DNA of 61,832 nucleotides, from contig JAGRGB010000024.1 in NCBI GenBank assembly GCA_020445745.1, positions 1 to 61,832 of the forward strand. The letters are read 5' to 3'. The position numbers and the translations under genes were made by a program. Under the pieces are notes generated by a model. The model saw nothing but the letters and a program-made list of their open reading frames with translations. It was not told where the DNA came from and made no database searches. The stretch is from Rhodocyclaceae bacterium. GTDB taxonomy: Bacteria; Pseudomonadota; Gammaproteobacteria; Burkholderiales; Rhodocyclaceae. Of the stretch, positions 12,611 through 37,870 are shown one piece after another (position 1 is the stretch's first letter; each line of letters opens with the position of its first letter).

Positions 12611-15600
12611 ATGACCGAGCGCGCGCCCGACGGCTACTCGATCTTCATCAGCTATGCGCATGCCGACGAGGCGTTCAAGGACGCGCTCACCCTGCAATTG
12701 AAGGGCTTCCGGCGCGAGGGCCTGCTCGCGCCGTGGGACGATCGCTGCATCGACGGCGGTGACGACTGGCATGACGAGATCGCCCACGCGATCGAGCGCT
12801 GCGACCTCGCGCTGTTGCTGGTGAGTCCGGCCTTCATTGCATCGGACTTCATCTACGGCGAGGAGTTGCCACGGCTGCGCGAACGGTGCGAGCGCGATGG
12901 CATCCGCATCGTGCCGATCATCCTGCGGCCTTGCACCTGGCGGCTCCAGGAGCAGATCGCTTCGTTGCAGGCGCGGCCCGCCGACGGCAAGCCGATCATC
13001 GGTTTCGCCGAGCACACCGGCGAGCGCGACCAGGCCTGGCTCGAGATCGTCGAAGAGATCGTCGGCTGGGCCCGCCAGCCCCGGACCGCCGCTGTGCCGA
13101 CAGCCGGTCCTCGAGCCGCCGACGCAGCGCTGGCAAGCCTCGACCGGCTGCGCGCAGCCCTCGCCGCCGGTGAGCCGGAAACCCTCGACGCAGCGACCCA
13201 CCAGCGCCTCCTCTCGCACAGCCCGCGCGATCTCGACGACTATCGCATCACACGCTTTGCGCAGTGGTCGCAGCCACGCTACCGGATCGACAAGCGCTTC
13301 ACCCGCCTGAACGTGCTGCTCGACCAGGGGCCGAAGGCGCAAGGCCAGCGCTGGCAGGAGCAGGCCCAGGATTTCGTTGACCTGCGGGAAGTGCTGGCCC
13401 AGGTCGGTGCGCCGGCGCTGGTGCTGCTCGGCCCGCCCGGCTGCGGCAAGAGCACGCTGCTGCAGCGCCTCGAACTCGACCTGGCCATCGACGGGCTGCG
13501 CGCCGCCGACCCGGCGACCGCGCCTGTCACGCTGCTGCTGCCGCTCAACCGCTACCGCCCGGCGGCGGACGGCGAACCATGGCCGTCGCCGGTCCAGTGG
13601 CTCGCCGAGCAGTGGCAGCGCCCCCGCCACCGCCAGCTGCCGCGCTTCGAGGACCTCCTCGCCAGTGGCCGTCTGGTGCTGCTGCTCGACGCGATCAACG
13701 AAATGCCCCATGCCGACGCCGACGAGTATCGACAACGCATCGGACGCTGGCGCGATTTTCTCGCCGAATTGCCCCAGCTCGGGCCGGGCACCCGGGTGGT
13801 GTTCTCATGCCGCAGCCTGGACTACAGCGCGCCACTATCTTCGCCGCAGCTGGCGGTGCCGCATGTGCGGGTGAAGGCGCTCGACGACGGCCAGGTGGCA
13901 GACTTCCTAGATCGCCACGGCGGCGAGCACGGCGCCCGGCTGTGGCGTCAATTGCGGGGCACGCCACAGCTGGAGGTATTCCGCTCGCCCTTCTTCCTGC
14001 GCCTGCTGGTGGAGCTGCCCGGCGCCGGCGAGGCGCTGCACAGCGGCCGCGCCGCGCTGTTCACGCTGTTCGTGCGCCACGCGCTGGCGCGCGAGGTCGG
14101 CGAACGGCAGCACCCCCTGTTCGCGCCCGACGGCCTGCTGGAGCGACACGACTACGAGCGCATCCTGCGCAACGAATGGGCCGACAGCTTCGAGCTGGCG
14201 GCCAACAGCCTGCTGTTCGCCGCGCTCGCCGAATTCGCCGTGGCGATGCAGGCTGGCCGCGCCGAAGGTGCCAGCGCCCATGTCCGCCTGCGCTACGGCG
14301 AATCACTCGCGCTGCTGGCCGGCAATGCGCGTGCCGAGGACCTGCTCGAAGCCGCGGCGGCGCTGCAGGTGCTCGTCGTCGAACGCGACGAGGTGCTGTT
14401 CTGCCACCAGTTGCTGCAGGAATATTTCGCCGCGCGCTCCCTCGCCCTGGCACCCCAGCCGGAACACGCGAACAGCGCCTGGCGGGCCGACGAAGTCTCG
14501 CCGCCCCTCGACGAGGTGCTGGCGACGCTGGCCGACTCCGACCCGCTGCCGGCGCTGGCGGCCACCGGCTGGGAAGAGACTCAGTTGCTCGCCGCCGCGA
14601 TGAGCCCGGACGCGCTGGCCCATGTCACCGCGCTGGCCGAGCGCAACCTGCCTCTGGCCGGACGCTGCGCGGCCCAGCCGGACGTGCAGCTGCCGGAAGA
14701 AGCGCGCGACGGCTTGCGGCAGGCGCTGATCGAACGCAGCCGCGACCCGCAGGCCGACTTGCGCGCCCGCATCGCCGCCGCCCGCGCGCTCGGCGAACTC
14801 GGCGATCCGCGCTTCGCGCGTCGCGACGGCGCGAACGGCCCTTGCCTGTTGCCGCCGACGGTAGCCATCGAAGGCGGCGAATACCCGATCGGCAGCGACG
14901 AAGGCCTTTTTGACAACGAGTCACCCGTTCACCGGGTTGTGGTCCGGCCCTTCGCGCTCGGCCGCTTCCCGGTCACCAACGCCGAGTTCCGCTGCTTCGT
15001 CGAGGCTGGTGGCTACGAGGACGGACGCTGGTGGCATGGGGAGGCCGCGCAGCGCTGGTGGCGCGGCGAGAGCACCGCGGACGGTCCGAAGCAGCAATGG
15101 CGCGAGGATCGCAGCAACCTGCAGGTGCCGGGCCGGATCGACAAGGCGCTGGATCGGGGCCGCATCACCTCCAAGCAAGCCAGCGAATGGAAGCGGATCG
15201 CCGCGCTGAGCGACACCGAGTTCGAGGCGCAGCTCGACGAATGGTATCCGGCCGGACGCCAGACGCAGCCGGCACTCTGGAACGACCCGGCCTCCAACCA
15301 TCCGGCGCAGCCGGTGGTCGGCATCGGCTGGTTCGAGGCGCGCGCCTTCTGCGCCTGGCTGGCGTCACAGACCGGCGAGCCCTGGCGTCTGCCGAGCGAG
15401 GCCGAGTGGGAAGCCGCCGCGCGCGGCCACGCGGCCCGCCGCTACCCCTGGGGCGAGGCATTCAGCGCCGCACGCTGCAATGCCTTCGAGACCCACGTGC
15501 GCACCACCACGCCGGTCGGCATCTTTGCCGGCGGCGACGGCCCCGAGGGCTTCAGCGACCTCAGTGGCAACGTCTGGGAATGGACCAGCACCCTCTACCG

Positions 15601-15787
15601 GACCTATCGATACGATGCGGATGACGGCCGCGAAGATGACGCGGCCGACGGCCCGCGGGTGCTGCGCGGCGGTTCGTGGTTCAACGGTCGTGACAACACC
15701 CGCTGCGCCAACCGCGGCTGGGACCCCCCTGGCACCCGCAACGACAACATCGGTTTTCGGGTGTGTCGCGCACCCCGCGTCCGCTGA
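12611..15787 (+). CDS. TIR-NACHT STAND protein with C-type-lectin/FGE-like C-terminal domain
   Basis: This 1058-residue protein has three recognisable parts. Residues about 8-150 are a TIR domain: YSIFISYAHADEAFKDAL, and SDFIYGEELPRLRERC with a candidate NADase glutamate at 84-85. Residues about 230-560 are a NACHT-type P-loop NTPase: GPPGCGKSTLL near 273 and RLVLLLDAINEMP near 355. Helical sequence follows. From about 745 to the end is a formylglycine-enzyme-like (C-type lectin) fold: EGGEYPIGSDEG, WRLPSEAEWEAAARG, FSDLSGNVWEWTS, and RVLRGGSWFNGRDNTRC. The catalytic cysteines of true formylglycine enzymes are not at their positions after RGGSW, so I read it as a binding domain. By analogy with bacterial NLR-like proteins it may sense an invader and deplete NAD. 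Confidence 0.9.
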   Translation: MTERAPDGYSIFISYAHADEAFKDALTLQLKGFRREGLLAPWDDRCIDGGDDWHDEIAHAIERCDLALLLVSPAFIASDFIYGEELPRLRERCERDGIRIVPIILRPCTWRLQEQIASLQARPADGKPIIGFAEHTGERDQAWLEIVEEIVGWARQPRTAAVPTAGPRAADAALASLDRLRAALAAGEPETLDAATHQRLLSHSPRDLDDYRITRFAQWSQPRYRIDKRFTRLNVLLDQGPKAQGQRWQEQAQDFVDLREVLAQVGAPALVLLGPPGCGKSTLLQRLELDLAIDGLRAADPATAPVTLLLPLNRYRPAADGEPWPSPVQWLAEQWQRPRHRQLPRFEDLLASGRLVLLLDAINEMPHADADEYRQRIGRWRDFLAELPQLGPGTRVVFSCRSLDYSAPLSSPQLAVPHVRVKALDDGQVADFLDRHGGEHGARLWRQLRGTPQLEVFRSPFFLRLLVELPGAGEALHSGRAALFTLFVRHALAREVGERQHPLFAPDGLLERHDYERILRNEWADSFELAANSLLFAALAEFAVAMQAGRAEGASAHVRLRYGESLALLAGNARAEDLLEAAAALQVLVVERDEVLFCHQLLQEYFAARSLALAPQPEHANSAWRADEVSPPLDEVLATLADSDPLPALAATGWEETQLLAAAMSPDALAHVTALAERNLPLAGRCAAQPDVQLPEEARDGLRQALIERSRDPQADLRARIAAARALGELGDPRFARRDGANGPCLLPPTVAIEGGEYPIGSDEGLFDNESPVHRVVVRPFALGRFPVTNAEFRCFVEAGGYEDGRWWHGEAAQRWWRGESTADGPKQQWREDRSNLQVPGRIDKALDRGRITSKQASEWKRIAALSDTEFEAQLDEWYPAGRQTQPALWNDPASNHPAQPVVGIGWFEARAFCAWLASQTGEPWRLPSEAEWEAAARGHAARRYPWGEAFSAARCNAFETHVRTTTPVGIFAGGDGPEGFSDLSGNVWEWTSTLYRTYRYDADDGREDDAADGPRVLRGGSWFNGRDNTRCANRGWDPPGTRNDNIGFRVCRAPRVR
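15658..15787 (+). other. Region resembling a diversity-generating-retroelement variable repeat
   Basis: The last 43 codons of the TIR-NACHT gene encode VLRGGSWFNGRDNTRCANRG, then a short segment and DNIGFRVCR. This ending is shared by many C-type-lectin-fold targets of diversity-generating retroelements, in which AAC-rich codons are mutated. Six AAC codons lie between 15681 and 15755, and the 3' end is GC-rich. No template repeat and no reverse transcriptase were seen in the window, so active diversification is not shown. Confidence 0.4.
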
Positions 15788-26383: not shown

Positions 26384-28402
26384 TCACTTGCCCGGCAGCA
26401 CCGCGACCCCCGCGGGGCCGGTTGCGCCGACCGCGGCGGCAGCCTCGCACTGACGCAGATAGAATGCCGCCGGCCCGTCGTCACCCGCGGCGACGGCCGC
26501 TTCGAATGCCGCCTTCGCCTGCCCAAGATCGCCGCGCTGGTAGGCCGCGAGCCCCTCCGCGAAGCGATCGACGACAGTCGCCGATGCCGCGCCACGCCCC
26601 AGTTCCAGCAACTCGAGGACCTGCTCCTTGCCGGCCAGCGCGAATCGCCCGAGGGGACGCAGCGCGGAATCGTCGCCGATGTGGTCGGACAGCTGGCCCG
26701 ACACCAGCACCCGCGTGCCGAGGTACTTGTTGGCACCCTCGATGCGGCTGCTGGTATTGACGATATCGCCCACCGCGTGCAGCTCCCGTCGCCCGCCCCG
26801 GCCGACCGCACCGTAGAAGATCGGGCCGCAGTGAAGCCCCAGGCGGGTCCGCAGGGCACCCGGCGCCGGGTGGGGCCCGTTCATCTCGCGATCGAGGCGC
26901 AGCGCGGCGGCGCAGGCCCCGGCCACTGCCTCAGCGGAATCCTCCTCGGCGAACCACAGCGACAATACCGAATCGGCGACCATGTCGGCGATGTGCCCGC
27001 CGTGGGCCTCGACGGCCTGCGCAAAACGATCCAGGTACAGGTCGAGCATGTCGCGCACCGCTTGCGGCGTGCGGCCCTCGCTGAGTCGCGTGAAGGCGAC
27101 GATGTCGCTGCACAGGCAGACCGCGAACAGGGTCCGCCCGCTGCCGACGTCGCCGATCCGCGACGACAGCCTGGCCAGGGCTTCGGGCGACAGCCCGAAC
27201 TCGATCGCATGCTCGAGTTCGCGGCGACGCCGGGCGCCACGCCGTTGCTGATGGCTCGCGCCGAGGGCCACGGCAATCATCGGCGACACCGCCAGCGGCA
27301 GGACCACCGGCAGCCACAGCTGGTAGCTGGCGAACGCGACCACCGCGCCAACCCCGTAGAGCGCCTGCATGCCCAGCATCGCCACCAGCGCCGCCCGGGT
27401 GCCGACGAGCGTCCAAGGCAGGACCAGCACGCCGGCGTGCAGCATCAGCAGGGCGATCACCACGCCCGCCCCCGGCCGAGCCAGCCACGAACCGTCCTGC
27501 AGATTGGCTAGCGCCGTGGCGCACAACTCGACACCGCTGACATCCACGCCATCGGCGCGCGTGTAGGGCGTCTGATAGGCATCGACCTGGCGCGACTGGT
27601 TGGTCTCCGAATAGCCGACCAGCACCGCCTTGCCCGCAAAATGCGCTGACCGGGCCGGATCGGCGAGCATTTCCAGCGCGGTCGGATAGGCGATCGTCTC
27701 GAAGCTGCCGATCGGACCATAGAGGTTCATCGCTATGGCACCGTCCGGAATCCCATCGGACGCGACGCCGAGAAGCTCGGCGAGACGCCCCGGCAGCGAG
27801 GGTCGATCGCCCAGGGTCGGCACCCGCCCCCAGAACTCGAACACGCCGTACGGCGTCTTGGGGAGCACGAACGGCGCGGTCGCTCTCGCGGCGTCGGCAA
27901 ACAGTGGCAGCGGCGGCCGGCTGGCCTCGACGGCGGCGACGACCCGTCCACCGTCGTCGCGAACGAAGTCGCGCTCGACCGTCTCAGCCAGCACCACGTT
28001 CCCCGACCGTCGAATGGCCTGGGCGAGGGCGGCGTCGTCGCCCGCGTCGCGTGGCCGCGCGAACAGCAGATCGAAGCCGATCGCCCGCACGCCGGCCACG
28101 TGCAGCCCGTCCACCAATTCGGCATGCAGGCGACGCGGCCAGCGGTCGGCCCGCGGCGGCACCCCGAGCGCCCGGGCCGATGCGCCATTCATCGCCACGA
28201 CGACGATGTTGGCCGGTGTCGGGCGCGGGCCACGCATCGCATACAGGAAGTCGAGCCCGAGCGCCGGCTCGAGCGTCGCCAACGGCGTCAGCCAGCTGGC
28301 GCCGGCCAGCAGGCCGCCGAGCAGGCTCAGGACGAGCACCGGCCGCCGCCCCGCACCCGGCGAACGCTGGCGAATCATTCCGGCCGCCCGGTCATCGAAC
28401 AT
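26384..28402 (-). CDS. CHASE2-domain class III adenylate/guanylate cyclase
   Basis: A 672-residue membrane cyclase. A first helix (VLVLSLLGGLLAGASWL) is followed by a periplasmic CHASE2 sensor of about 300 residues (FLYAMRGPRP, GVRAIGFDLLFARPR, FAGKAVLVGYSE). Three further helices then lead to the cyclase domain near 425-600. Metal-binding aspartates are in CSDIVAFTRLSE and ADMVADSVLSLW, and the transition-state residues are in AVGDIVNTSSRIEG. The usual substrate Lys before the second Asp is Asp here (HIADMVAD). A TPR-like tail closes the protein. It is divergent from the FecR-TPR-barrel gene. Confidence 0.92.
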   Translation of the reverse strand: MFDDRAAGMIRQRSPGAGRRPVLVLSLLGGLLAGASWLTPLATLEPALGLDFLYAMRGPRPTPANIVVVAMNGASARALGVPPRADRWPRRLHAELVDGLHVAGVRAIGFDLLFARPRDAGDDAALAQAIRRSGNVVLAETVERDFVRDDGGRVVAAVEASRPPLPLFADAARATAPFVLPKTPYGVFEFWGRVPTLGDRPSLPGRLAELLGVASDGIPDGAIAMNLYGPIGSFETIAYPTALEMLADPARSAHFAGKAVLVGYSETNQSRQVDAYQTPYTRADGVDVSGVELCATALANLQDGSWLARPGAGVVIALLMLHAGVLVLPWTLVGTRAALVAMLGMQALYGVGAVVAFASYQLWLPVVLPLAVSPMIAVALGASHQQRRGARRRRELEHAIEFGLSPEALARLSSRIGDVGSGRTLFAVCLCSDIVAFTRLSEGRTPQAVRDMLDLYLDRFAQAVEAHGGHIADMVADSVLSLWFAEEDSAEAVAGACAAALRLDREMNGPHPAPGALRTRLGLHCGPIFYGAVGRGGRRELHAVGDIVNTSSRIEGANKYLGTRVLVSGQLSDHIGDDSALRPLGRFALAGKEQVLELLELGRGAASATVVDRFAEGLAAYQRGDLGQAKAAFEAAVAAGDDGPAAFYLRQCEAAAAVGATGPAGVAVLPGK

Positions 28403-28608
28403 CGAACGGCCCTGCTGCCGGACACATCCGGGCCGCGGCGTCCGGCACGGAGGCGTCGAGCTTCGCTCATGGCATCGATTTCCAGGCAGAGGCCGCCCAT
28501 TTTAGGCATTCCGGCGGCGGCAAGGGCAAACGCCACGCCGGCCCACGGCCGGGCAGCGAGCCTTCGTGACATAGTTCATGCTGCCAACGAGGCGTGCGTC
28601 ACCCCGCC

Positions 28609-28637
28609 TTGTGATCGTCATAGCGGGTCGCTAGAGT
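28609..28637 (+). promoter_or_regulatory. Putative promoter of the FecR-TPR-barrel gene
   Basis: TTGTGA (28609-28614) and TAGAGT (28632-28637) are separated by 17 bases, 51 bases upstream of the chosen start. The 286-base divergent region otherwise shows nothing clear. Match by eye only. Confidence 0.4.
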
Positions 28638-28688
28638 GTCATATGCGGCGTGCAACAATTCGTAATGACTTCTGGCGAGGCGCACAAC

Positions 28689-31600
28689 ATGCACTGCTGG
28701 CCGACGCGACCCGGGGTCGCGCGATGTCTGGGGAGGATCGTCGTCGCCACGCTGGCCGCTTCGGTGTCGACGCTTGCCACTGCCGCCTGTGACGAGCCGG
28801 CGGGGCAATTGATCAACGCCGAGGGCCTCGTCGAGCGACGGGCGACGGAGACCTCGCCGTGGCAAGTGATCGAAGTGCCGGCGACCCTGTGCGCCGGCGA
28901 CATGATCGCGGTGCGCCCGCCGGGGCGGGCGGCCGTTCAACTGCGGGACGGCTCGCTGCTGCGACTCGACGAGAACAGCACCCTGCACGTGCTTGCCGCC
29001 AGCCGCGAGCGGCAGACCGAGCTCGGCCTGGTCGAAGGATTCCTCCACGTGATCACGCGCATGCGCAAGCATTTCAGCGTGACCACGCCGTTCATCAACG
29101 CCCTCGTCGAGGGTACCGAATTCAGCGTGGCGAGCCGCAAGCGCCGCGCACAGGTCGTCGTCGAATCCGGCACCGTGCGCACCGAGAACGCCCACGGCAG
29201 CGTCGTGCTGCCGGCCGGCGCAGCGATCGAGGCGATCGCCGACGCCGGGCCGCGCCAGATCGAGGTGCGTCCGCTCGACGCCCTGCGCTGGGCGATCCAC
29301 TATCCGCAGATCGTCTGGCACGACGACGACGCGCTGGCGAGGCTGCCCGCCGCACAGGCAGATGCCCTGCGGGCGGCCCAGGCGCAGATGGCCGCTGCCC
29401 GCTATGGCGACGCGCTCCGGCTCCTCGACGGCGTCGGCAACGGGCCGGAAGCGACCAGTACCCGCGTCTCGCTGCTGCTGGCCCTCGGCCGCGTCGATGA
29501 CGCGGTGGCGACCCTCGATCGCGTGCAGCACGAGGGCGATCCCGCCCTGGCGGCCCTGACGGCACTCATCCAGGTGGCCCGCAACCAGCCCCAGGGCAGC
29601 GATACCGCCCGGCAGGCCGCCGCGGCGGGCCCGGATTCCGCCGCCGCCCGGCTGGCCCTGAGCCACGCCAGGCAGGCCCGCGGCGCACTCGACGAGGCGC
29701 TCGCCGCGGCCCGTGACGCCACCCGGCTGGCACCGCAGAACCCGTTCGCGTGGGCCCGCCGGGCCGAGCTGGAACTGTCCCTGACCCTCACCGCGGCCGC
29801 CCGCCGTTCGCTCGCCGAACTGACCGCCCGGGCACCGCAGCTGCCGCGCGCCAAGACCTTGCTCGGATTCGCCGAACTGATCGACGGCGCCACCGGCGCA
29901 GCCCGCCAGCGCTTCGGCGAAGCGCTCGCCGCCGACGATTCCGATCCCCTCGCCTATTTCGGACAGGGCCTGGCGGCCGTGCGCAGCGGTGACTACGAAG
30001 ACGGCCGTCGCGACATCGAGCGCGCGGTACTGCTCGACCCCGGCAATGCCGAACTGCGGGCCTATCTGGCGCGAGTCTATGTCGAGGAAGACCGCAGCGC
30101 GCTTGCCGGCAAGGAACTCGAGCTGGCCCGCCGTCTGGATCCCGCTTCACCGACGCCGTGGCAGTTCGATGCCCTGCGCAAACTGCGCGACAACGATCCG
30201 GTCGGTGCGCTGGCCGACGGGCGGCGGGCGATCGAATTGAACGACAACCGGGCTGTGCTGCGCTCGCCGCACTTGCTGGATATCGATCGGGCTGCGCATA
30301 GCGCGAGTCTGGGGCCCGCCTACTCGCGTCTCGGGTTCGACCTTTCCCTGAGACGCGCAGCTATCGACGCCCTCTTCGACGACCCGATCGGCGCCTCCGG
30401 TCACCGGCTTCTCGCGGATGCATTGACCCTGATGCCCCGGCATCAAGCCGCCAGAACCTCGGCATCGCTCAAGGCGCGGTTGCGACAGCCCTTGGGCCGT
30501 GCGCCGCTTCCCCAGCACGTCGTCGCGCAAAAGTTCCCGATTGCAGAGGGTTCCCGAGCCCTGTCGCCCGAAGAGGGGACAGACCTCTTCCTGCGCGGCA
30601 CCGGACACCTGTTCGTCACCGCAGTTGCCGGCAATCAAGAGACGCGGGCGGCGAGCATTGCCGCGATGAGGGCCGCCGAACGAGCCGAGGTATCGCTGAA
30701 CCATTATCACTATCAACGCAGCGGTCTGGATGGATTTCCGGACACCCGCATATCCGGAACACACCTCGGCATGCGCTTTGCGCCGAGCGCCACCCATACG
30801 GTACTGGCGGAGCTATCGACGGCCGAGCTGAAGGGCGGGCCCGACGTGCCCGGCCTGCTGCAAGACAGCATGCCCCCGCTCGTGGATAATCCGCTGAATC
30901 GCGACACGGCGCGGCTGGCATTTCGCCATGCCCCCGGGACAGATTCCGAAACGCTGATCGTCGCCTCGTCGGATCGGCTGCGCGAGAGGTCGGAGTTCGA
31001 TTTTGGACCAGTATTCGGCTCATCGACACTGAGCACCACGGCATACGCCAATACAGTCGAAATCCTGCATAGTTCGCACCTGTCCGAACACCGGCTCACA
31101 CTGGGCGCAGGCCATTACCGCGAGAACTCGAAAGGGGTCCAGATACCGTCCTTCGGATTTCCACCGATGTGGGCGCGAAGCACTCATACGACCATATATG
31201 GCCGCGTGGACTACAAACATTCGAACAAGATGACCGTTCACGTCGCCGCGACACACGACGACCTCGACGACATGCCGCCGGCCTCGGCCACTCGGGCGGG
31301 AGGCAAGATCGGCCTCAGCTACGATCTCGCTGCTCCCACGAGGCTGCAATTGGCGATTGCGCAGGGGATCAAAGGTCCGAAGTATTACGACCAGACGATT
31401 CTCCCCACGGATTTCGCAGGTTTCAACCAGACCTTCGACGACTTCACCGGAACTCGTTGGCGTTCCCAGGCGATTTCGGTCGATCATCGTCTCGGCAACG
31501 GTGGCCGGATTGGCGCAGGGGCCTCACATCGGCTCCTCGATGTGCCGAATGCGGGTTGCGGCTTTGCAGTCGGCTGCAGAACGGACTGGGACGAGTGGCT

Positions 31601-32039
31601 GTACGAGGCCTATGTCGAAAAGCCGCTGACAGCGGACATCGCGCTCTCCTTGAACTGGATCGTCGAAAAGCTGGACTTTACCGGCGACGCATCCGACTCG
31701 CCGACGCTGCCATCGTATGTCCGTACCGAACTCGTGCCGATCGGCATTTGGTGGCACCTAACCGATCGGCTTTCCAGTCGCATCGAGGCGACGCACCTTC
31801 GCCAGCACGCGATGATCGATCCTGGCGGTGGCATCGTCGATCGCACCGAGGACGTCTGGCTGGCGAATGTTCACCTCTCGCACGAAGAACCTCGTCAGCG
31901 ATTCGGCTTTTCGATTGACGTACATAATCTGTTTGATCGTCGCTTCCGGTTCCAGAACACGGACTGGAACGGAAGCCCGCGCACACCGCTTTTCTATGCC
32001 GATCGAACAGTCTTGCTGCAGCTAACCATGCGGTACTGA
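28689..32039 (+). CDS. FecR-TPR protein with C-terminal outer-membrane beta-barrel
   Basis: A 1116-residue exported protein. The signal peptide is CLGRIVVATLAASVSTLATA, cleaved before about residue 34. A FecR-like domain follows (about 40-200: AVQLRDGSLLRLDENSTL, FSVTTPFINALVEGTEFSV, VESGTVRTE). About 300 residues of TPR repeats come next (AARDATRLAPQNPFAWARR, DIERAVLLDPGNAELRAYL). The last 500 or so residues are amphipathic strands and end HNLFDRRFRFQ ... TVLLQLTMRY, with a terminal aromatic, as in TonB-dependent-receptor barrels. No plug domain is seen. I chose the ATG at 28689 for its GGCGAGG ribosome site and clean signal peptide. It may be an outer-membrane pore or receptor regulated with the CHASE2 cyclase. 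Confidence 0.85.
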   Translation: MHCWPTRPGVARCLGRIVVATLAASVSTLATAACDEPAGQLINAEGLVERRATETSPWQVIEVPATLCAGDMIAVRPPGRAAVQLRDGSLLRLDENSTLHVLAASRERQTELGLVEGFLHVITRMRKHFSVTTPFINALVEGTEFSVASRKRRAQVVVESGTVRTENAHGSVVLPAGAAIEAIADAGPRQIEVRPLDALRWAIHYPQIVWHDDDALARLPAAQADALRAAQAQMAAARYGDALRLLDGVGNGPEATSTRVSLLLALGRVDDAVATLDRVQHEGDPALAALTALIQVARNQPQGSDTARQAAAAGPDSAAARLALSHARQARGALDEALAAARDATRLAPQNPFAWARRAELELSLTLTAAARRSLAELTARAPQLPRAKTLLGFAELIDGATGAARQRFGEALAADDSDPLAYFGQGLAAVRSGDYEDGRRDIERAVLLDPGNAELRAYLARVYVEEDRSALAGKELELARRLDPASPTPWQFDALRKLRDNDPVGALADGRRAIELNDNRAVLRSPHLLDIDRAAHSASLGPAYSRLGFDLSLRRAAIDALFDDPIGASGHRLLADALTLMPRHQAARTSASLKARLRQPLGRAPLPQHVVAQKFPIAEGSRALSPEEGTDLFLRGTGHLFVTAVAGNQETRAASIAAMRAAERAEVSLNHYHYQRSGLDGFPDTRISGTHLGMRFAPSATHTVLAELSTAELKGGPDVPGLLQDSMPPLVDNPLNRDTARLAFRHAPGTDSETLIVASSDRLRERSEFDFGPVFGSSTLSTTAYANTVEILHSSHLSEHRLTLGAGHYRENSKGVQIPSFGFPPMWARSTHTTIYGRVDYKHSNKMTVHVAATHDDLDDMPPASATRAGGKIGLSYDLAAPTRLQLAIAQGIKGPKYYDQTILPTDFAGFNQTFDDFTGTRWRSQAISVDHRLGNGGRIGAGASHRLLDVPNAGCGFAVGCRTDWDEWLYEAYVEKPLTADIALSLNWIVEKLDFTGDASDSPTLPSYVRTELVPIGIWWHLTDRLSSRIEATHLRQHAMIDPGGGIVDRTEDVWLANVHLSHEEPRQRFGFSIDVHNLFDRRFRFQNTDWNGSPRTPLFYADRTVLLQLTMRY

Positions 32040-32844: not shown

Positions 32845-35283
32845 TCAGGCGCGAACGCGTCGATCACCGGCAGCCGGTTCCGACTCGAACAGCGGCATCG
32901 CCGATGCCCCCGGCGATGCCAGGTCGAACACCAGTGCGGCGACGCCCAGTTCGCCCTTGTAGAGGCTGTCCTGGTAGCCATCCGCGCTGTCCGACAGGGC
33001 TGGGCCGATCCACTCGGCCGCCCGCTCGGCGGCGATCCGGGCCCGTGCCAGCCAGGCCGGGTCGCCGGTGTGCTTGTAGCAATGCAGCAGTGCGTAGCCG
33101 CGCCCCGCCCAGCCGCAACAGAGGTTCGCTGCCCGGCCGGGTTCTTCCCAGGCGTTCCAGGCGGCCATCTCGGCCAGTTTCCCGTAGCGCGAGTCGTCCA
33201 GCATGCGATGGGCCAGGGCCCACAGGAAGACCAGCCCTGCGCTGCCGTTGCACCAGCCGGGCATGTAGCTCGGATCGCCGGCGACCACCTGCCATGGCCA
33301 GCGCGCGCCGCGGCCGATCGGTTCGGCGTAGGCGGCCAATTGGTCGAGCCGCTCGGACACGCCCTCAGGAGGCACCTGTCCGCTTGCCTCGCACCAGCGC
33401 AGCAGGGCGTAGATCAGCCCGGCCCAGCCGTGGGCGATGCCCAGGGTGGTGATCCGGTCGTTGCGCGCGATCGGCGGCGAGGCGCCGATGACCTCGGCGA
33501 TACGCGCCGCGCCGGATTCACCCAGGGACAGCAGGCCCGCCCGTTCGGCCAGTTCGAGCGAGGGGAGTGCTTCGACGAGCAAGGTGTTCGCCAGCAGCAC
33601 GCCGCTTTGACCGAGCGTCAGGTCGAGGTTGTCGCACGGCGCCCGCGCAGCCGCGCCGAAGGCCGCCAGCGCTGCCTGCAGTGACGCGTCGTCGCCCCTG
33701 GCCAGCGCGATCATCGCCTGCACCGCGAAGACCCCGCTCGGGGAATGGTAGGGCGACACACGGCCGACGGTGTCTGCAGTGATCTCGATCGCCGGGTTGT
33801 GGAAGGCCCCTTCGTCGCCGACCATCGCCGCGGCCCGCGTGGCCCAGACGTCCGCCAGGGCCAGCGGGGCCGGATCGCCGCCGACGGTGGCCACGTGGTA
33901 CAGGACATGGGCTGCACCGCTTGCGCCGTAGTTGATCGACGCGGTGGGTGACCGGGTCCACCCGTCGCGCATCAGCGCACCATCCCAGCCCAGCCTTTGC
34001 AGCACGCGTGACAGCAGAGCTTGTCCGTGCCCGCTTGCCGAGCGGGCCGAATCGGCGGCATCGGAGTCCACGCTCTCCGGATCGGGCCGCCGATCGCCCG
34101 CCGCCTTCAGTGCCGCCGCGAAAGCGTCGAGATCGGGGTAGCGCTGTCGTGGATCCTTGCTCAACGCGCGGCGCAGCACGGCCTCGACCGCGGGCCATGG
34201 CCGCGCCCCCCGGCGCGCGAACGCCAGCGGTTCCTCGCTGGCGATCTCGCGCAACATCTCGTCCTGGCCAAGGGAAAAGTCGCAATAGTGATGCCCGGTG
34301 AGCAGCAAATAGACGAGCGCGCCGAGCGCGTACTGTTCGCCCGCGAGCGAGGCCGCCGGGAGCGCCTGTTTCGCCAGGCGCGCCGATGCGTATTCGGGCT
34401 CGAAGAAGAAGCCGACGCCGCCGCGCTGCACGCCGGCGGAAGCATCCCGGGCACCGACGATGCGCGCCAGCCCGAAATCGATCAGGTGGATCCGGCCGTC
34501 GGCGTCGACGAGGATGTTGCGGGGATGGATGTCGCCATGAACCACGCCGCGCGCATGCAGCCCGGCGTAGGCATCGAGCATCGCAACGCACAGCGACAGC
34601 AGCTTCCCCCCGCGGGCCGCGAGCGGTGCCTGGCGGCACTCCGCGGCGGCCACGTCGGCGGCGACGCCCCCCAGCCAGGGCTGCACGAGGTAGGCGCGCC
34701 CGTCCCAAAGCCCGGCCTCGACGGCGATCGGCAGGCCCTTCTCCGCCATGTGCCGCAGCACGCGCGATTCGTGCTCGATCAGCCGCGCGGCCAGGGCGCC
34801 ACCCTTCGCGCGGACCAGCTTGAGGGCGACCAGCGCATCGCCGGGCCCCCGCGCCTGGTACAGCTCGGAGTCGTCGAGGGACTGCACGCAGCGGACGATG
34901 GTGTAGCGGTCGACCTCGGCGCCGGGCGCAAGGCTGGTCACGATCTCCTCGGCCTGAGGCGTGTCGCCGGGCACCAGAAGCTGGGAATTGACCAGCTCCT
35001 GGATCAGTGGAAAGGCCTCCCGGAGCGTCTCGTGCGGGTCGCTGCCGATGGCGATGCTGTAGCGCAGCACGCCGTCGCCCAGGGTCGTCGGCGTGCGGAA
35101 CTCCTTCAGCAGGCCGGCCGCCGCCGCGTTGATGACCTTCGACGGCGTACGCGAGCGATGGCGGGTTATCGCCACGTCGCCCGCGTCGCAGGCCAGGCGT
35201 CGGCGAAGTTCCGGGCTCAGCTCGCCGACCGGCGAGAAATCCACGTCTTCGGGTACTACCAGGGGATCCGCTATGCTCGCCAC
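32845..35283 (-). CDS. Ser/Thr kinase-LanC-like cyclase fusion (lanthionine synthetase-like)
   Basis: This 812-residue protein has three parts. Residues about 1-110 form a small domain (SKVINAAAAGLLKEFRTPTT, FPLIQELVNSQLLVPGD) resembling PqqD-like RiPP recognition elements; this is inference. Residues about 120-390 are a protein kinase: VALKLV (Lys), EHESRVLRHM (Glu), VVHGDIHPRNILV near 249 and LIDFGLAR near 270. Residues about 420-800 are a LanC-like alpha-toroid: LGIAHGWAGLIYALLRW, zinc Cys in PGWCNGSAGL near 674, LCCGWAGRGYALL near 720, and SLYKGELGVAAL. The CCG in place of the usual CHG resembles three-cysteine zinc sites of some LanM enzymes. There is no lyase domain here; it seems to be the preceding gene. 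Starts at GTG 35283, directly after that gene's stop. Confidence 0.88.
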   Translation of the reverse strand: MASIADPLVVPEDVDFSPVGELSPELRRRLACDAGDVAITRHRSRTPSKVINAAAAGLLKEFRTPTTLGDGVLRYSIAIGSDPHETLREAFPLIQELVNSQLLVPGDTPQAEEIVTSLAPGAEVDRYTIVRCVQSLDDSELYQARGPGDALVALKLVRAKGGALAARLIEHESRVLRHMAEKGLPIAVEAGLWDGRAYLVQPWLGGVAADVAAAECRQAPLAARGGKLLSLCVAMLDAYAGLHARGVVHGDIHPRNILVDADGRIHLIDFGLARIVGARDASAGVQRGGVGFFFEPEYASARLAKQALPAASLAGEQYALGALVYLLLTGHHYCDFSLGQDEMLREIASEEPLAFARRGARPWPAVEAVLRRALSKDPRQRYPDLDAFAAALKAAGDRRPDPESVDSDAADSARSASGHGQALLSRVLQRLGWDGALMRDGWTRSPTASINYGASGAAHVLYHVATVGGDPAPLALADVWATRAAAMVGDEGAFHNPAIEITADTVGRVSPYHSPSGVFAVQAMIALARGDDASLQAALAAFGAAARAPCDNLDLTLGQSGVLLANTLLVEALPSLELAERAGLLSLGESGAARIAEVIGASPPIARNDRITTLGIAHGWAGLIYALLRWCEASGQVPPEGVSERLDQLAAYAEPIGRGARWPWQVVAGDPSYMPGWCNGSAGLVFLWALAHRMLDDSRYGKLAEMAAWNAWEEPGRAANLCCGWAGRGYALLHCYKHTGDPAWLARARIAAERAAEWIGPALSDSADGYQDSLYKGELGVAALVFDLASPGASAMPLFESEPAAGDRRVRA

Positions 35284-36492
35284 CTAGATGCTCCTCGTTT
35301 CGTCCCGGACCTGTCTGGCCGGTGCCCAGGTCTTGATGTCCACGCCTTCGATGCTCAGCCGGCGCAGCGCAAACTGCCATGGCTCGATATCGCCTGGCGC
35401 CGATTTGGCGGTGACGAGCGCGACGGCCAGCCGATTCGTCACCCACAGCCGCCAGCTTTCCGGAAGGCTCGAACCGGGCATTCGATCCTCGCCCGGCGGA
35501 TCCATGCCCCACGACAACAGACCGGCGTCGTCGATGCCCGCGGTAAAGGGCGTGCCTTGTGCCGGACAGTCCTGCAGGTGCTCCTGCAAGGTCGCCGCCA
35601 GCGCGGCCAGTTGCTCGAAGGAGTCCGGATAGGCCACGATCTTGTCCGGGCGCAGCAGGCCGGAGACATCCCGCCCGACCTTGAACGCCGCCACCTGGCA
35701 CCGCGCGAAGAGCTCGACGATCACCGGCCAGAAGCGCGGCAGCGCGTCGGCGCTCGGGCTCAGATACAGCTTGCATTGGCGGACCGTTGCCCACCGGGTG
35801 CCTGCGCAGCGCGGTTCACGCCGCCGCCACATGATCCAGCCCTCGCTGCCTTCACGCTCGTCCAGCCGCGCCCAGTGGCGCTCGAGGGATCGGCTCGTGG
35901 CGGCATCTCCGCGAACGCCGAGGAAATCCTCGACCGCGGCGAGGGTGGGAAGCCGTTCACGCCAGGCCGACGTGATCGGGATGGTGTTGTACGCATAGAG
36001 GCGGGACGAAAGCTCGGCCACGCCATCGACGCGCAGCAGTTGCCCGTAGCGGAGGGCCTCCCGGGACAGCACCGAAATCCTTCCGCTGCCCAGCTCGATG
36101 GCTTCGTCCTGGTAGATCAGGCCGTGGGCGGCGGGGCCGGAGACGAATGGCGCGTCCGGACCGGTCGCCAGTTCGAGCACGCCGTCCAGCACCAGCTCGG
36201 CGATGGCCTGGTTGCAGCCAGAGCCGAGACGGGTTCGAACGTAGGCCGGCAGGCTGCCCGGTTGGCGCAGGGAGTGCAGCAGCAAGGCCGTCTCGTGGCA
36301 CAGGGTCTTCGGCGACAGGCCCTTGTTCTCGGTCGGCCACAGCACGCCGTGCAGCGCCGGGTCCTTGTCCGCCTCGGCCTGGAACTGCCTGCGGTATTCC
36401 TCCGGCATCCGATCGATCAGCACGATCTCGTAGTCCGGATTGGCTCGGAAGACCGCTCCGGTGATCGTTCTCAATGCCGCCGAATCGATCAC
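35284..36492 (-). CDS. Stand-alone HopA1-like lyase candidate
   Basis: A 402-residue soluble protein between a Cys-rich peptide gene and the kinase-cyclase gene. The C-terminal half has the layout of the HopA1 family, which supplies the phospho-Ser/Thr lyase in class V lanthipeptide synthesis: CKLYLSPSADALPRFWPVI, then AFKVGRDVSGLLRPDKIVAY, GTPFTAGIDDAGLLSWGMDP and a final helix RLWVTNRLAVALV. The N-terminal half is unfamiliar. Resemblance is by pattern, not alignment, so the assignment is moderate. Context is strong: stop and next start are contiguous, and the neighbouring enzyme has kinase and cyclase but no lyase. Confidence 0.6.
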   Translation of the reverse strand: MIDSAALRTITGAVFRANPDYEIVLIDRMPEEYRRQFQAEADKDPALHGVLWPTENKGLSPKTLCHETALLLHSLRQPGSLPAYVRTRLGSGCNQAIAELVLDGVLELATGPDAPFVSGPAAHGLIYQDEAIELGSGRISVLSREALRYGQLLRVDGVAELSSRLYAYNTIPITSAWRERLPTLAAVEDFLGVRGDAATSRSLERHWARLDEREGSEGWIMWRRREPRCAGTRWATVRQCKLYLSPSADALPRFWPVIVELFARCQVAAFKVGRDVSGLLRPDKIVAYPDSFEQLAALAATLQEHLQDCPAQGTPFTAGIDDAGLLSWGMDPPGEDRMPGSSLPESWRLWVTNRLAVALVTAKSAPGDIEPWQFALRRLSIEGVDIKTWAPARQVRDETRSI

Positions 36493-36555
36493 CTCGTCAC
36501 CTCCTGCGTGGCTGGACAGCGCTTGCCGCGCCAGGCGGCCCGGCCATCTTCCGCC

Positions 36556-37026
36556 TCACTTGCCCATCTCCTTCCTGGCCGCCTGGACCTCCTCCAGCGC
36601 GGCCTTCAGCCCTGCCTCGAGCATCTCTGCCTGCTCGACGGTCTTGGGTTTCATGTCGTGCGAGATCTCCTCGCTGCGCACGCTCAATGCCTTGAGGGCC
36701 TCGTTGAGCTGGCCCTGCACGGCCTTGATGTCGTCCGGATTGATGACGAGACGCTCGAAGTCGATCACCCACAGGCGGGTATCCATGCAGGTCGAATAAT
36801 TGACGCCGCAGCCGTCGGAAAGGAAGCACGAACCCCGGAAGCAGGCCGTCAATGTCGGATTCCTGCACAGCAGGCTGCGATCGGGACAGTGGTATGTGTT
36901 GAGCCGGCAGTGCAGCGTGAAGTTGACACACGCGTTGGTCGGGAAATGACAGATGGCACCTGCGATCTCGTCCAGTTTGGCGGAGGCGATGTCCACCATC
37001 AGGTTTTTCACTTTGAATTGGGCCAT
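36556..37026 (-). CDS. Nine-cysteine peptide, candidate RiPP precursor
   Basis: A 156-residue protein with an excellent AAGGAG ribosome site 7 bases before its ATG. Residues 1-25 (MAQFKVKNLMVDIASAKLD...) could be a leader. Residues about 26-85 hold nine cysteines interspersed with Ser and Thr: ICHFPTNACVNFTLHCRL, TYHCPDRSLLCRNPTLTACF, RGSCFLSDGCG, STCMDT. From about 90 to the end it is a charged, amphipathic helix (LNEALKALSVRSEEISHDMK ... ALEEVQAARKEMGK). A central Cys/Ser/Thr-rich block between two other segments is unusual; a C-terminal follower would be the alternative to a leader. It precedes the lyase-like gene by 63 bases. Role as substrate of the neighbouring enzymes is inferred. Confidence 0.8.
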   Translation of the reverse strand: MAQFKVKNLMVDIASAKLDEIAGAICHFPTNACVNFTLHCRLNTYHCPDRSLLCRNPTLTACFRGSCFLSDGCGVNYSTCMDTRLWVIDFERLVINPDDIKAVQGQLNEALKALSVRSEEISHDMKPKTVEQAEMLEAGLKAALEEVQAARKEMGK

Positions 37027-37030
37027 GGAC

Positions 37031-37870
37031 CTACTCCTTGCTTGTTGCCCGGTACTCGAACCGGGTGGTTGAAAGAATCGGCCGAGGATTGAGGACGGTT
37101 GCCGGGTCCATGCACATCGCGGGCGCGGTGTTGCGCCGATTCCGGTCGCGCCGCCCTCCCCGCGCCTGCGATCGCAGCCGCATCCACGAACAGCAGGACA
37201 GGGCCATCGCCACCAGCGCCAGCGCGGACGGCTCCGGTATCGTTGCGGCCCGATCCGAGACATCGATCGCGGAACCCGCGACCTCACCGTTGTCGCCGAC
37301 TTCGCCGATGTACAGGAACAGCCCGGCGGAAGAGACCGGCGAGACCAGGTTGAAGATCACCTGACCGAAGTCGCCCAGGCTGATGAAGCCGTCTGCCCCG
37401 GGAATCACCGTGGTGGCGTTGCCGTCGAAGATGCCGAGGGTCGCGACGATGTCGTCGACCTCGGTGCCGGAGGCGTCGCTGCCGAACAGCTTGGCGTCGA
37501 ACGGTGGCCGCTGCGCACCCGCGTTGAAGATCGTCCCGGACGGCAGGTAGTCGAACACCGGCAGGCCGCTGAGGCCGGCCGCGCAGGCGGCGCTCGCGCA
37601 GAACACGTTGGACAGGATCGCGGCATCGAGATCGAAACCGCTGAACTGCCCGGCGGCACCCCCGAAGCCACCGCTGACATCGCGGATCGACAGCGACAGG
37701 ATTTCCATGATGCCGATCGCGCCGAGCTCCGCCCGATAGACCGCGGTCGCGGCGGGCACGCCGCCGGTGACGCCGGTCAGCTTGGTGAGGGTGACGGGCA
37801 GCGCATGGACCGCCGTCGACATGACGGTGCCGACGACCAGCGCCGCGAGCCTTGATTCGAGTCTTGCCAT
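37031..37870 (-). CDS. PEP-CTERM sorting-domain protein
   Basis: A 279-residue secreted protein. Signal peptide: MARLESRLAALVVGTVMSTAVHA. A PEP-CTERM sorting signal lies near residues 213-233: IPEPSALALVAMALSCCSWM then RLRSQARGG, the substrate type for exosortase/EpsH systems. The family usually ends just after the basic cluster, but here about 45 further residues follow (RNRRNTAPAMCMD...). The gene ends 4 bases before the Cys-rich peptide start and contains that gene's ribosome site, so the tail may be a run-on frame that couples translation. CAGGAG precedes its own ATG. No exosortase is in the window. Confidence 0.8.
   Translation of the reverse strand: MARLESRLAALVVGTVMSTAVHALPVTLTKLTGVTGGVPAATAVYRAELGAIGIMEILSLSIRDVSGGFGGAAGQFSGFDLDAAILSNVFCASAACAAGLSGLPVFDYLPSGTIFNAGAQRPPFDAKLFGSDASGTEVDDIVATLGIFDGNATTVIPGADGFISLGDFGQVIFNLVSPVSSAGLFLYIGEVGDNGEVAGSAIDVSDRAATIPEPSALALVAMALSCCSWMRLRSQARGGRRDRNRRNTAPAMCMDPATVLNPRPILSTTRFEYRATSKE

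What the first reader, a model, noticed from the sequence alone, without database searches (positions are those of the whole stretch)
32845..37870. Candidate lanthipeptide-like RiPP cluster with a split synthetase
One leftward operon encodes a PEP-CTERM protein, a nine-cysteine Ser/Thr-rich peptide, a stand-alone protein patterned like HopA1-type lyases and a kinase-LanC fusion. Known classes: III/IV fuse lyase, kinase and cyclase; V has three separate proteins. Here lyase is separate and kinase plus cyclase are fused, with a possible recognition domain at the N terminus. Contiguous stop/start (35284/35283) and a 4-base gap (37031/37026) argue for one functional unit. Seen: motifs and spacing. 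Inferred: lanthionine formation and substrate identity.
Basis: partly seen in the sequence, partly recalled or inferred. Interest (0 to 1): 0.85.

Follow-up and report, generated by a model that had tools for sequence, protein, structure and literature searches.

The report
Split lanthipeptide synthetase with Cys-rich precursors
A three-gene unit that appears to make sulfur-bridged peptides with a two-protein enzyme of an unusual layout; the same genes sit together in bacteria of eight phyla, so it looks like an overlooked, widespread variant of lanthipeptide biosynthesis.

Summary
The 402-aa protein hits no Pfam model by itself, but its AlphaFold model (pLDDT 87) matches, at E<=0.001, 23 PDB chains that are all phospho-Ser/Thr lyases or synthetases containing one. 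Its K271/R281/Y288 spacing equals that of CaoY of class V. The 812-aa protein joins an N-terminal domain, a Ser/Thr kinase and a LanC cyclase with a CCC zinc triad. The same lyase lies beside the same kinase-cyclase at 22 of 22 loci in eight phyla, with a precursor gene upstream at 21; the other is cut by its contig end. Precursors share an N-terminal FxVKDLMI-type motif, a variable, mostly Cys-rich middle and a C-terminal, probably helical, region. The PEP-CTERM gene is not part: the sister genome lacks it. A PqqD-type fold of the N-terminal domain is unproven, but in two Cupriavidus loci this domain is also fused to a 2OG-Fe(II) oxygenase. Ten paper searches showed me no description of this layout. 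Lanthionine formation itself is inferred.

The parts
36556..37026 (-). Precursor peptide gene (156 aa, 9 Cys), start ATG at 37026
   Evidence: dN/dS 0.065 against G001; homologous precursor genes upstream of the lyase at 21 of 22 loci
37034..37039 (-). Ribosome-binding site AAGGAG of the precursor gene
   Evidence: read from the sequence
36994..37017 (-). N-terminal motif FKVKNLMV of the precursor (residues 4-11), family consensus FxVKDLMI; proposed recognition motif
   Evidence: motif pattern in 16 of 21 precursors; of 2277 ORFs of 60 aa or more in the loci 9 match and all 9 are precursors
36787..36951 (-). Cys/Ser/Thr-rich middle (residues 26-80), Cys at 26,33,40,47,54,62,67,73,80; proposed core
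   Evidence: five of eight Cys gaps are exactly 7 (p about 2.5e-5, chosen after seeing the spacing); Ser/Thr at Cys-3 and Cys+4 above shuffles (p 0.01, 0.0015)
36559..36780 (-). C-terminal charged, probably helical region (residues 83-156), alike across most of the family
   Evidence: helical nature inferred from sequence
35284..36492 (-). Stand-alone HopA1/LanY-type phospho-Ser/Thr lyase (402 aa); K241, K271, R281, Y288 invariant in 21 aligned rows
   Evidence: spacing compared with CaoY
32845..35283 (-). Kinase-cyclase fusion (812 aa)
34939..35283 (-). N-terminal domain (about 115 aa), proposed recognition domain; also fused to a 2OG-Fe(II) oxygenase in Cupriavidus L009 and L020
   Evidence: PqqD relation inconclusive
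34084..34926 (-). Ser/Thr kinase domain with K155, E172, HGD, N256, DFG
32875..33996 (-). LanC cyclase domain with H618 and zinc triad C678, C722, C723
   Evidence: PF05147 E=8.2e-22; triad in 15 of 20 aligned rows, lost in 3, cut off in 2

Best explanation
The unit encodes a lanthipeptide-type RiPP pathway with a two-component synthetase. The kinase of the 812-aa protein phosphorylates Ser/Thr in the Cys-rich middle of the precursor. The separate HopA1/LanY-type lyase eliminates the phosphates to give dehydroamino acids. The zinc LanC domain, on the same chain as the kinase, adds Cys thiols to form (methyl)lanthionine rings. The N-terminal domain of the kinase-cyclase probably binds the precursor, most likely its FxVKDLMI motif; the C-terminal helical region may be a second docking site. 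In the window peptide the near-heptad Cys spacing, with Ser/Thr three before or four after Cys, would give a chain of small rings. Shown: gene order, co-conservation, lyase fold (predicted), presence of catalytic and zinc residues. Inferred: each chemical step, ring pattern, recognition and product function.
For: Lyase fold: all 23 PDB chains at E<=0.001 are phospho-Ser/Thr lyases or contain one; 3 of 21 family members reach Pfam HopA1, best E 7.6e-4; K-10-R-7-Y as in CaoY in 21 of 21 aligned rows and in L076 and L089. Kinase and zinc residues present. Lyase and kinase-cyclase together at 22 of 22 loci, precursor upstream at 21 of 22. Lyase and kinase-cyclase distances correlate, r=0.90 over 18 loci (shared descent alone could give this). 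Precursor motif specific. The three kinase-cyclases that lost the zinc triad (L023-L025) go with one-Cys precursors, while 14 of the 15 rows with the triad go with 5 to 28 Cys (the fifteenth, L017, has no precursor in reach).
Against: No product known and no chemistry tested. No exporter or leader peptidase was seen among the neighbours scanned (not every neighbour was scanned). Paracoccus L028 has a one-Cys precursor but keeps the zinc motifs, and L076 keeps them with a three-Cys precursor; the triad loss is one clade, so the Cys/zinc link is weak. L090 has lyase and kinase-cyclase but no clear precursor, and its lyase has His in place of the Tyr and one residue less between Lys and Arg. Ser/Thr at Cys-3 is not enriched over the family (p 0.10). 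Foldseek TM-scores are modest (0.33-0.39 by query, 0.40-0.58 by target for the five best hits) and several alignments have an rmsd over 10 A.
Confidence: 0.8

Rival explanations
1. The enzymes dehydrate Ser/Thr but the LanC domain only binds metal or scaffolds, so the product carries dehydroamino acids or free Cys and binds metal rather than holding thioether rings.
For: Very Cys-rich precursors (up to 33 Cys), no exporter seen among scanned neighbours, and the L023-L025 clade has no zinc ligands.
Against: H618 and the CCC zinc triad are kept in all 15 rows that reach that region outside the L023-L025 clade; Ser/Thr lie at preferred offsets from Cys.
Confidence: 0.12
2. A regulatory phospho-system: the kinase modifies cellular proteins and the lyase removes the marks irreversibly; the Cys-rich protein is a structural or sensor partner.
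For: The lyase fold is shared with effectors that remove phosphate from host protein kinases; neighbours in the window include Crp and CHASE2-cyclase signalling genes.
Against: LanC fusion, precursor family with variable Cys-rich middle at 21 of 22 loci, and LanB and 2OG oxygenase genes beside it in Cupriavidus.
Confidence: 0.05
3. It is a divergent class V (LanK/LanY/LanC) system in which the kinase happens to be fused to LanC, not a separate kind.
For: Best PDB hits are chain B of the class V complex LxmKY, taken to be LxmY; stand-alone lyase as in class V; the kinase also passes the Pfam APH cut-off (30.6 against 23.2 bits).
Against: The kinase-cyclase scores best against class IV LanL (1.7e-49) and its best Pfam kinase model is Pkinase (7.8e-13) before APH (3.8e-7); class V precursors have a C-terminal core, these have a C-terminal region after it; extra N-terminal domain.
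Confidence: 0.25

Closest known systems
Class V lanthipeptide dehydratase LanK/LanY (CaoKY, LxmKY)
   Same: Separate HopA1-type lyase; K/R/Y active-site spacing; best PDB hits
   Different: LanK is an APH-family kinase not fused to LanC; CaoY uses Arg187 where this family has Lys241 by motif order; precursor ends in the core
Class IV synthetase LanL
   Same: Ser/Thr kinase followed by LanC; best NCBIfam match of the 812-aa protein (168.9 bits, cut-off 650)
   Different: Lyase is not in the chain; another N-terminal domain takes its place; zinc triad is CCC, while a survey calls type IV CCH (33 peptides) and lists only 8 peptides with lyase and CCC (PMC11251773, passages)
Class III synthetase LanKC (ThurKC)
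   Same: Lyase and kinase domains, lyase fold
   Different: Lyase separate here; the class III cyclase lacks the zinc motif (PMC10676316, passages)
Class VI (Streptococcus LanKCb)
   Same: Another recently added layout of kinase, lyase and cyclase
   Different: A single synthetase with kinase and truncated lyase and cyclase domains (PMC10676316, passages)

Membership tests
Class IV lanthipeptide synthetase (LanL) | Lyase, kinase and LanC in one chain | tested here: not met
   Lyase and kinase-cyclase are separate reading frames at 21 of 22 loci; L028 lies in pieces
Class IV lanthipeptide synthetase (LanL) | Score above the NCBIfam NF038150 cut-off | tested here: not met
   168.9 against 650 bits
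Class V (LanK + LanY + LanC) | Separate HopA1-type lyase | tested here: met
   Predicted fold and residues
Class V (LanK + LanY + LanC) | Stand-alone APH-family kinase | tested here: not met
   Kinase is fused to LanC; Pkinase is the best Pfam model, although APH also passes its cut-off
HopA1/OspF-type phospho-Ser/Thr lyase | Fold | tested here: met
   All 23 hits at E<=0.001; TM-scores modest
HopA1/OspF-type phospho-Ser/Thr lyase | Pfam PF17914 match | tested here: not met
   Window protein no hit at E<=1; 3 of 21 relatives hit, best 7.6e-4
HopA1/OspF-type phospho-Ser/Thr lyase | Catalytic Lys, Arg, Tyr | tested here: met
   K271, R281, Y288 in 21 of 21 aligned rows, spacing as CaoY; L090, outside that alignment, departs
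LanC cyclase | Pfam PF05147 and zinc triad | tested here: met
   77.7 bits, cut-off 23.2; CCC triad
RiPP recognition element (PqqD-like) | PqqD sequence profile or fold | tested here: inconclusive
Lanthipeptide | Lanthionine or methyllanthionine in the product | not testable with these tools
   needs mass spectrometry

The most novel reading that the evidence does not exclude
A further class of lanthipeptide biosynthesis, spread over at least eight phyla, defined by a stand-alone lyase, a fused recognition-domain/kinase/zinc-LanC protein and mostly long precursors whose Cys-rich core lies between an N-terminal FxVKDLMI motif and a C-terminal helical follower; its products may be large chains of thioether rings kept for a conserved cellular role rather than small antibiotics, since the window precursor evolves more slowly than its enzymes.
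Probability: 0.5. Interest if true: 0.85.

Novelty: new variant of a known kind. Interest (0 to 1): 0.75.

Why it matters
Lanthipeptide classes are defined by how the dehydratase and cyclase are split and fused. This layout differs from the layouts of classes III to VI in the papers I saw and is co-conserved across eight phyla, several represented here only by metagenome bins. A stand-alone lyase that must work with a fused kinase-cyclase makes the evolution of split and fused synthetases testable. It also points to precursors that searches for short ORFs would miss: the 21 aligned here are 124-282 residues long, while one published class V survey took ORFs under 110 residues.

Tried and rejected
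PEP-CTERM gene as a member of the unit: rejected, absent in G001. PqqD relation of the N-terminal domain: Pfam, NCBIfam, PDB profile and hhalign all inconclusive (27 of 30 PqqD loci used, three were cut by contig ends, strand picked by eye). First AlphaFold job with two sequences gave pLDDT 39 and was not used. The scan of genome contigs with the window lyase alone found nothing; the four-sequence alignment found 19 loci. The precursor alone found itself and one match at E=0.009 in 299 genomes, not followed up. With single window proteins or the two-row profile, the lyase turned up in 2 of 150 relatives and 1 of 398 phylum genomes, and the kinase-cyclase at E<=1e-30 in 1 of 369 class genomes, the window's own genome counted each time; at most two and four candidates per genome were scored in the rows shown, except the own genome. 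NCBIfam hits of single precursors (best E 0.0014, two of 21) name unrelated proteins and I read them as chance.

Rows dropped: L028 (reading frame in pieces) from A7-A9; the two plasmid rows from A9; L011 (98 residues) and L028 from the kinase-cyclase alignment A8; the cut first precursor of L013 and that of L028 from A10. L003 and L010 are the same locus and were counted once. The 13 members in the family test are one per group, chosen by hand. Some lyase starts used for gaps (L012, L021, L026, L027) are my choice or the match start.

Paper searches (ten, listings seen). Passages seen in PMC12328550, PMC10676316, PMC9486802 (also section 7 whole), PMC11251773, PMC10604976, PMC12141560, PMC12710340, PMC7794033, PMC10676384. 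Most subscription papers, and preprints not deposited in PMC, could not be searched.
Full report
What is there. The leftward genes at 32845-37026 encode a 156-aa peptide with nine Cys, a 402-aa protein and an 812-aa protein. The 812-aa protein carries a Ser/Thr kinase (PF00069, 7.8e-13) and a LanC domain (PF05147, 8.2e-22), and its best NCBIfam match is the class IV synthetase LanL, far below that model's cut-off. The 402-aa protein matched no Pfam or NCBIfam model at E<=1 and no solved structure by sequence beyond two weak Cas matches (best E=0.066).

Sister genome. Of the six genomes of the genus searched for the lyase, two have it. The peptide is 92% identical, the enzymes 73 and 74%; dN/dS is 0.065, 0.27 and 0.24. 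The PEP-CTERM ORF is missing there, so I leave it out of the unit.

Relatives elsewhere. tblastn against plasmids found kinase-cyclase and lyase together in Paenibacillus peoriae and Cupriavidus oxalaticus at 39-42% identity. A lyase alignment then found 19 loci in a collection of one genome for each of 84,980 species. Together with the window and the two plasmids this makes 22 loci, from Pseudomonadota, Bacillota, Acidobacteriota, Chloroflexota, Armatimonadota, Gemmatimonadota, Actinomycetota and Eremiobacterota/Vulcanimicrobiota by record title. All 22 have a kinase-cyclase homologue near the lyase, most of them directly after it; three are cut by contig ends (L011, L013, L016) and one lies in pieces (L028). 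In Cupriavidus (L009, L020) the kinase-cyclase lies on the other strand about 0.9 kb away, and in L014 about 1 kb downstream. The kinase-cyclase profile, run over 17 genomes that hold the loci, gave one further full gene (L076); the other matches listed are kinase-only, parts of the same genes on the same or other contigs, or the oxygenase fusion, and more matches existed than were listed. Over 297 genomes of the phylum of L012 it gave four genomes and five genes, three of them outside the 22 loci (L076, L089, L090), each with the lyase beside it (three candidates scored per genome). I found no kinase-cyclase of this family without the lyase, apart from pieces cut by contig ends.

The precursors. 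At 21 of the 22 loci a gene lies upstream of the lyase on the same strand; in the 20 loci measured the gap from the nearest precursor runs from -28 to 195 bases. L017 has only 121 bases upstream, and in L028 the precursor is the start of a longer ORF. L014 has a second precursor further up, and L013 the cut end of one. Of the three extra loci, L076 and L089 have one and L090 only a doubtful 73-aa ORF. Across 21 aligned precursors from 20 loci the ends are alike and the middles are not. Sixteen of 21 have F-x-[VI]-[KRN]-[DNE]-[LI] in the first 16 residues, and among 2277 ORFs of the loci the nine that match are all precursors. They hold 1 to 33 Cys. In the window peptide five of eight Cys gaps are exactly seven residues (p about 2.5e-5, a test chosen after seeing the spacing), with Ser/Thr enriched at -3 and +4 of Cys (p 0.01 and 0.0015). 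Over 13 members +4, +1, -2 and weakly +3 are enriched, while -3 is not (p 0.10) and -4, -1 and +2 are depleted; internal repeats inflate these figures. The Paenibacillus precursor repeats a Cys-bearing unit three times between charged units.

The lyase. Alignment of 21 lyases leaves K241, Y243, K271, R281 and Y288 among the invariant residues. CaoY, the class V lyase, uses R187, K219, R229 and Y236 (PMC9486802, passages): K-10-R-7-Y is the same spacing as K271-R281-Y288, and it holds in 21 of 21 aligned rows and in L076 and L089, but not in L090, which has one residue less and His for Tyr. Lys241 by order stands where CaoY has Arg and OspF-type enzymes have Lys; the OspF His is replaced by Tyr243. 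This equivalence is by motif order, not by superposition. An AlphaFold model from 19 sequences reached pLDDT 87.4. All 23 PDB chains at E<=0.001 are phospho-Ser/Thr lyases or synthetases containing one: chain B of LxmKY (taken to be LxmY), HopA1, OspF, SpvC, VirA, ThurKC, SalKC, PneKC, CuvL; the next four are too, and unrelated RNA-binding folds begin at E=0.014. TM-scores are modest and several alignments have an rmsd over 10 A, perhaps partly because the query has a large extra N-terminal part. Three of 21 relatives hit Pfam HopA1, best E 7.6e-4.

The kinase-cyclase. K155, E172, H249, D251, N256, D269 and G271 are present in all 20 aligned rows. H618 with the zinc triad C678/C722/C723 is present in 15, the triad is absent in three (Nitrosomonas L024, L025 and Sphingomonas L023) and cut off in two. 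Those three have precursors with a single Cys; 14 of the 15 with the triad have precursors with 5 to 28 Cys, and L017 has none in reach. Paracoccus L028 also has a one-Cys precursor but keeps the zinc motifs, and L076 keeps them with a three-Cys precursor, so the correlation is suggestive only, and the loss is one clade.

The N-terminal domain. It is recognisable in all 19 rows compared. Two Cupriavidus loci carry the same domain fused to a 2OG-Fe(II) oxygenase, next to a LanB and a cupin-like protein. A domain shared by different modifying enzymes of one cluster is what a substrate-recognition module would look like. I could not show that it is PqqD-like: one of 19 members hits PqqD at E=0.22, and hhalign gives probability 2.7%, less than the 4.1% of a kinase control.

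Mechanism. Kinase phosphorylates, lyase eliminates, LanC cyclises; the N-terminal domain holds the precursor. The gene set, predicted fold and residues are shown; the chemistry, ring pattern and the use of motif and follower are inferred. The slow evolution of the window precursor speaks against an arms-race antibiotic, but its function is open.

Known or new. Classes III and IV fuse lyase, kinase and cyclase; class V uses separate LanK, LanY and sometimes LanC (PMC10604976; PMC12328550; passages); class VI is one synthetase with truncated domains (PMC10676316, passages). None of these has a separate lyase with a fused kinase-cyclase. In ten searches of an open-access library no title, abstract start or passage that I saw describes it; most subscription papers were out of reach. 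I call it a new variant of a known kind.

Noticed in passing
L009:12375-13448 and L020:8936-10069: The N-terminal domain of the kinase-cyclase is fused to a 2OG-Fe(II) oxygenase beside the same lyase and precursor, with a full-length LanB and a Cupin_8 protein close by.
   Followed up: partly
L023, L024, L025 (Sphingomonas, Nitrosomonas): A subfamily with a shortened lyase (243-254 aa), a cyclase domain without zinc ligands and similar one-Cys precursors containing a conserved NPDCGGTS stretch.
   Followed up: partly
L091:2213-2740, L013, L014, L027: Precursors with long tandem Cys repeats (up to 33 Cys) and, in L013 and L014, two precursor genes in tandem (one of L013 cut by the contig end).
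   Followed up: no
window 12611-15787: A 1058-aa protein with TIR, NACHT and FGE-sulfatase domains, a layout seen in defence or conflict proteins (recalled).
   Followed up: no
window 26384-32039: A CHASE2-adenylate cyclase divergent from a FecR-TPR protein; the latter differs much between the two species (54% identity).
   Followed up: no
window 37031-37870: A PEP-CTERM-like ORF that runs 46 residues past its sorting motif and is absent from the sister genome; possibly a degraded or recently inserted gene.
   Followed up: partly
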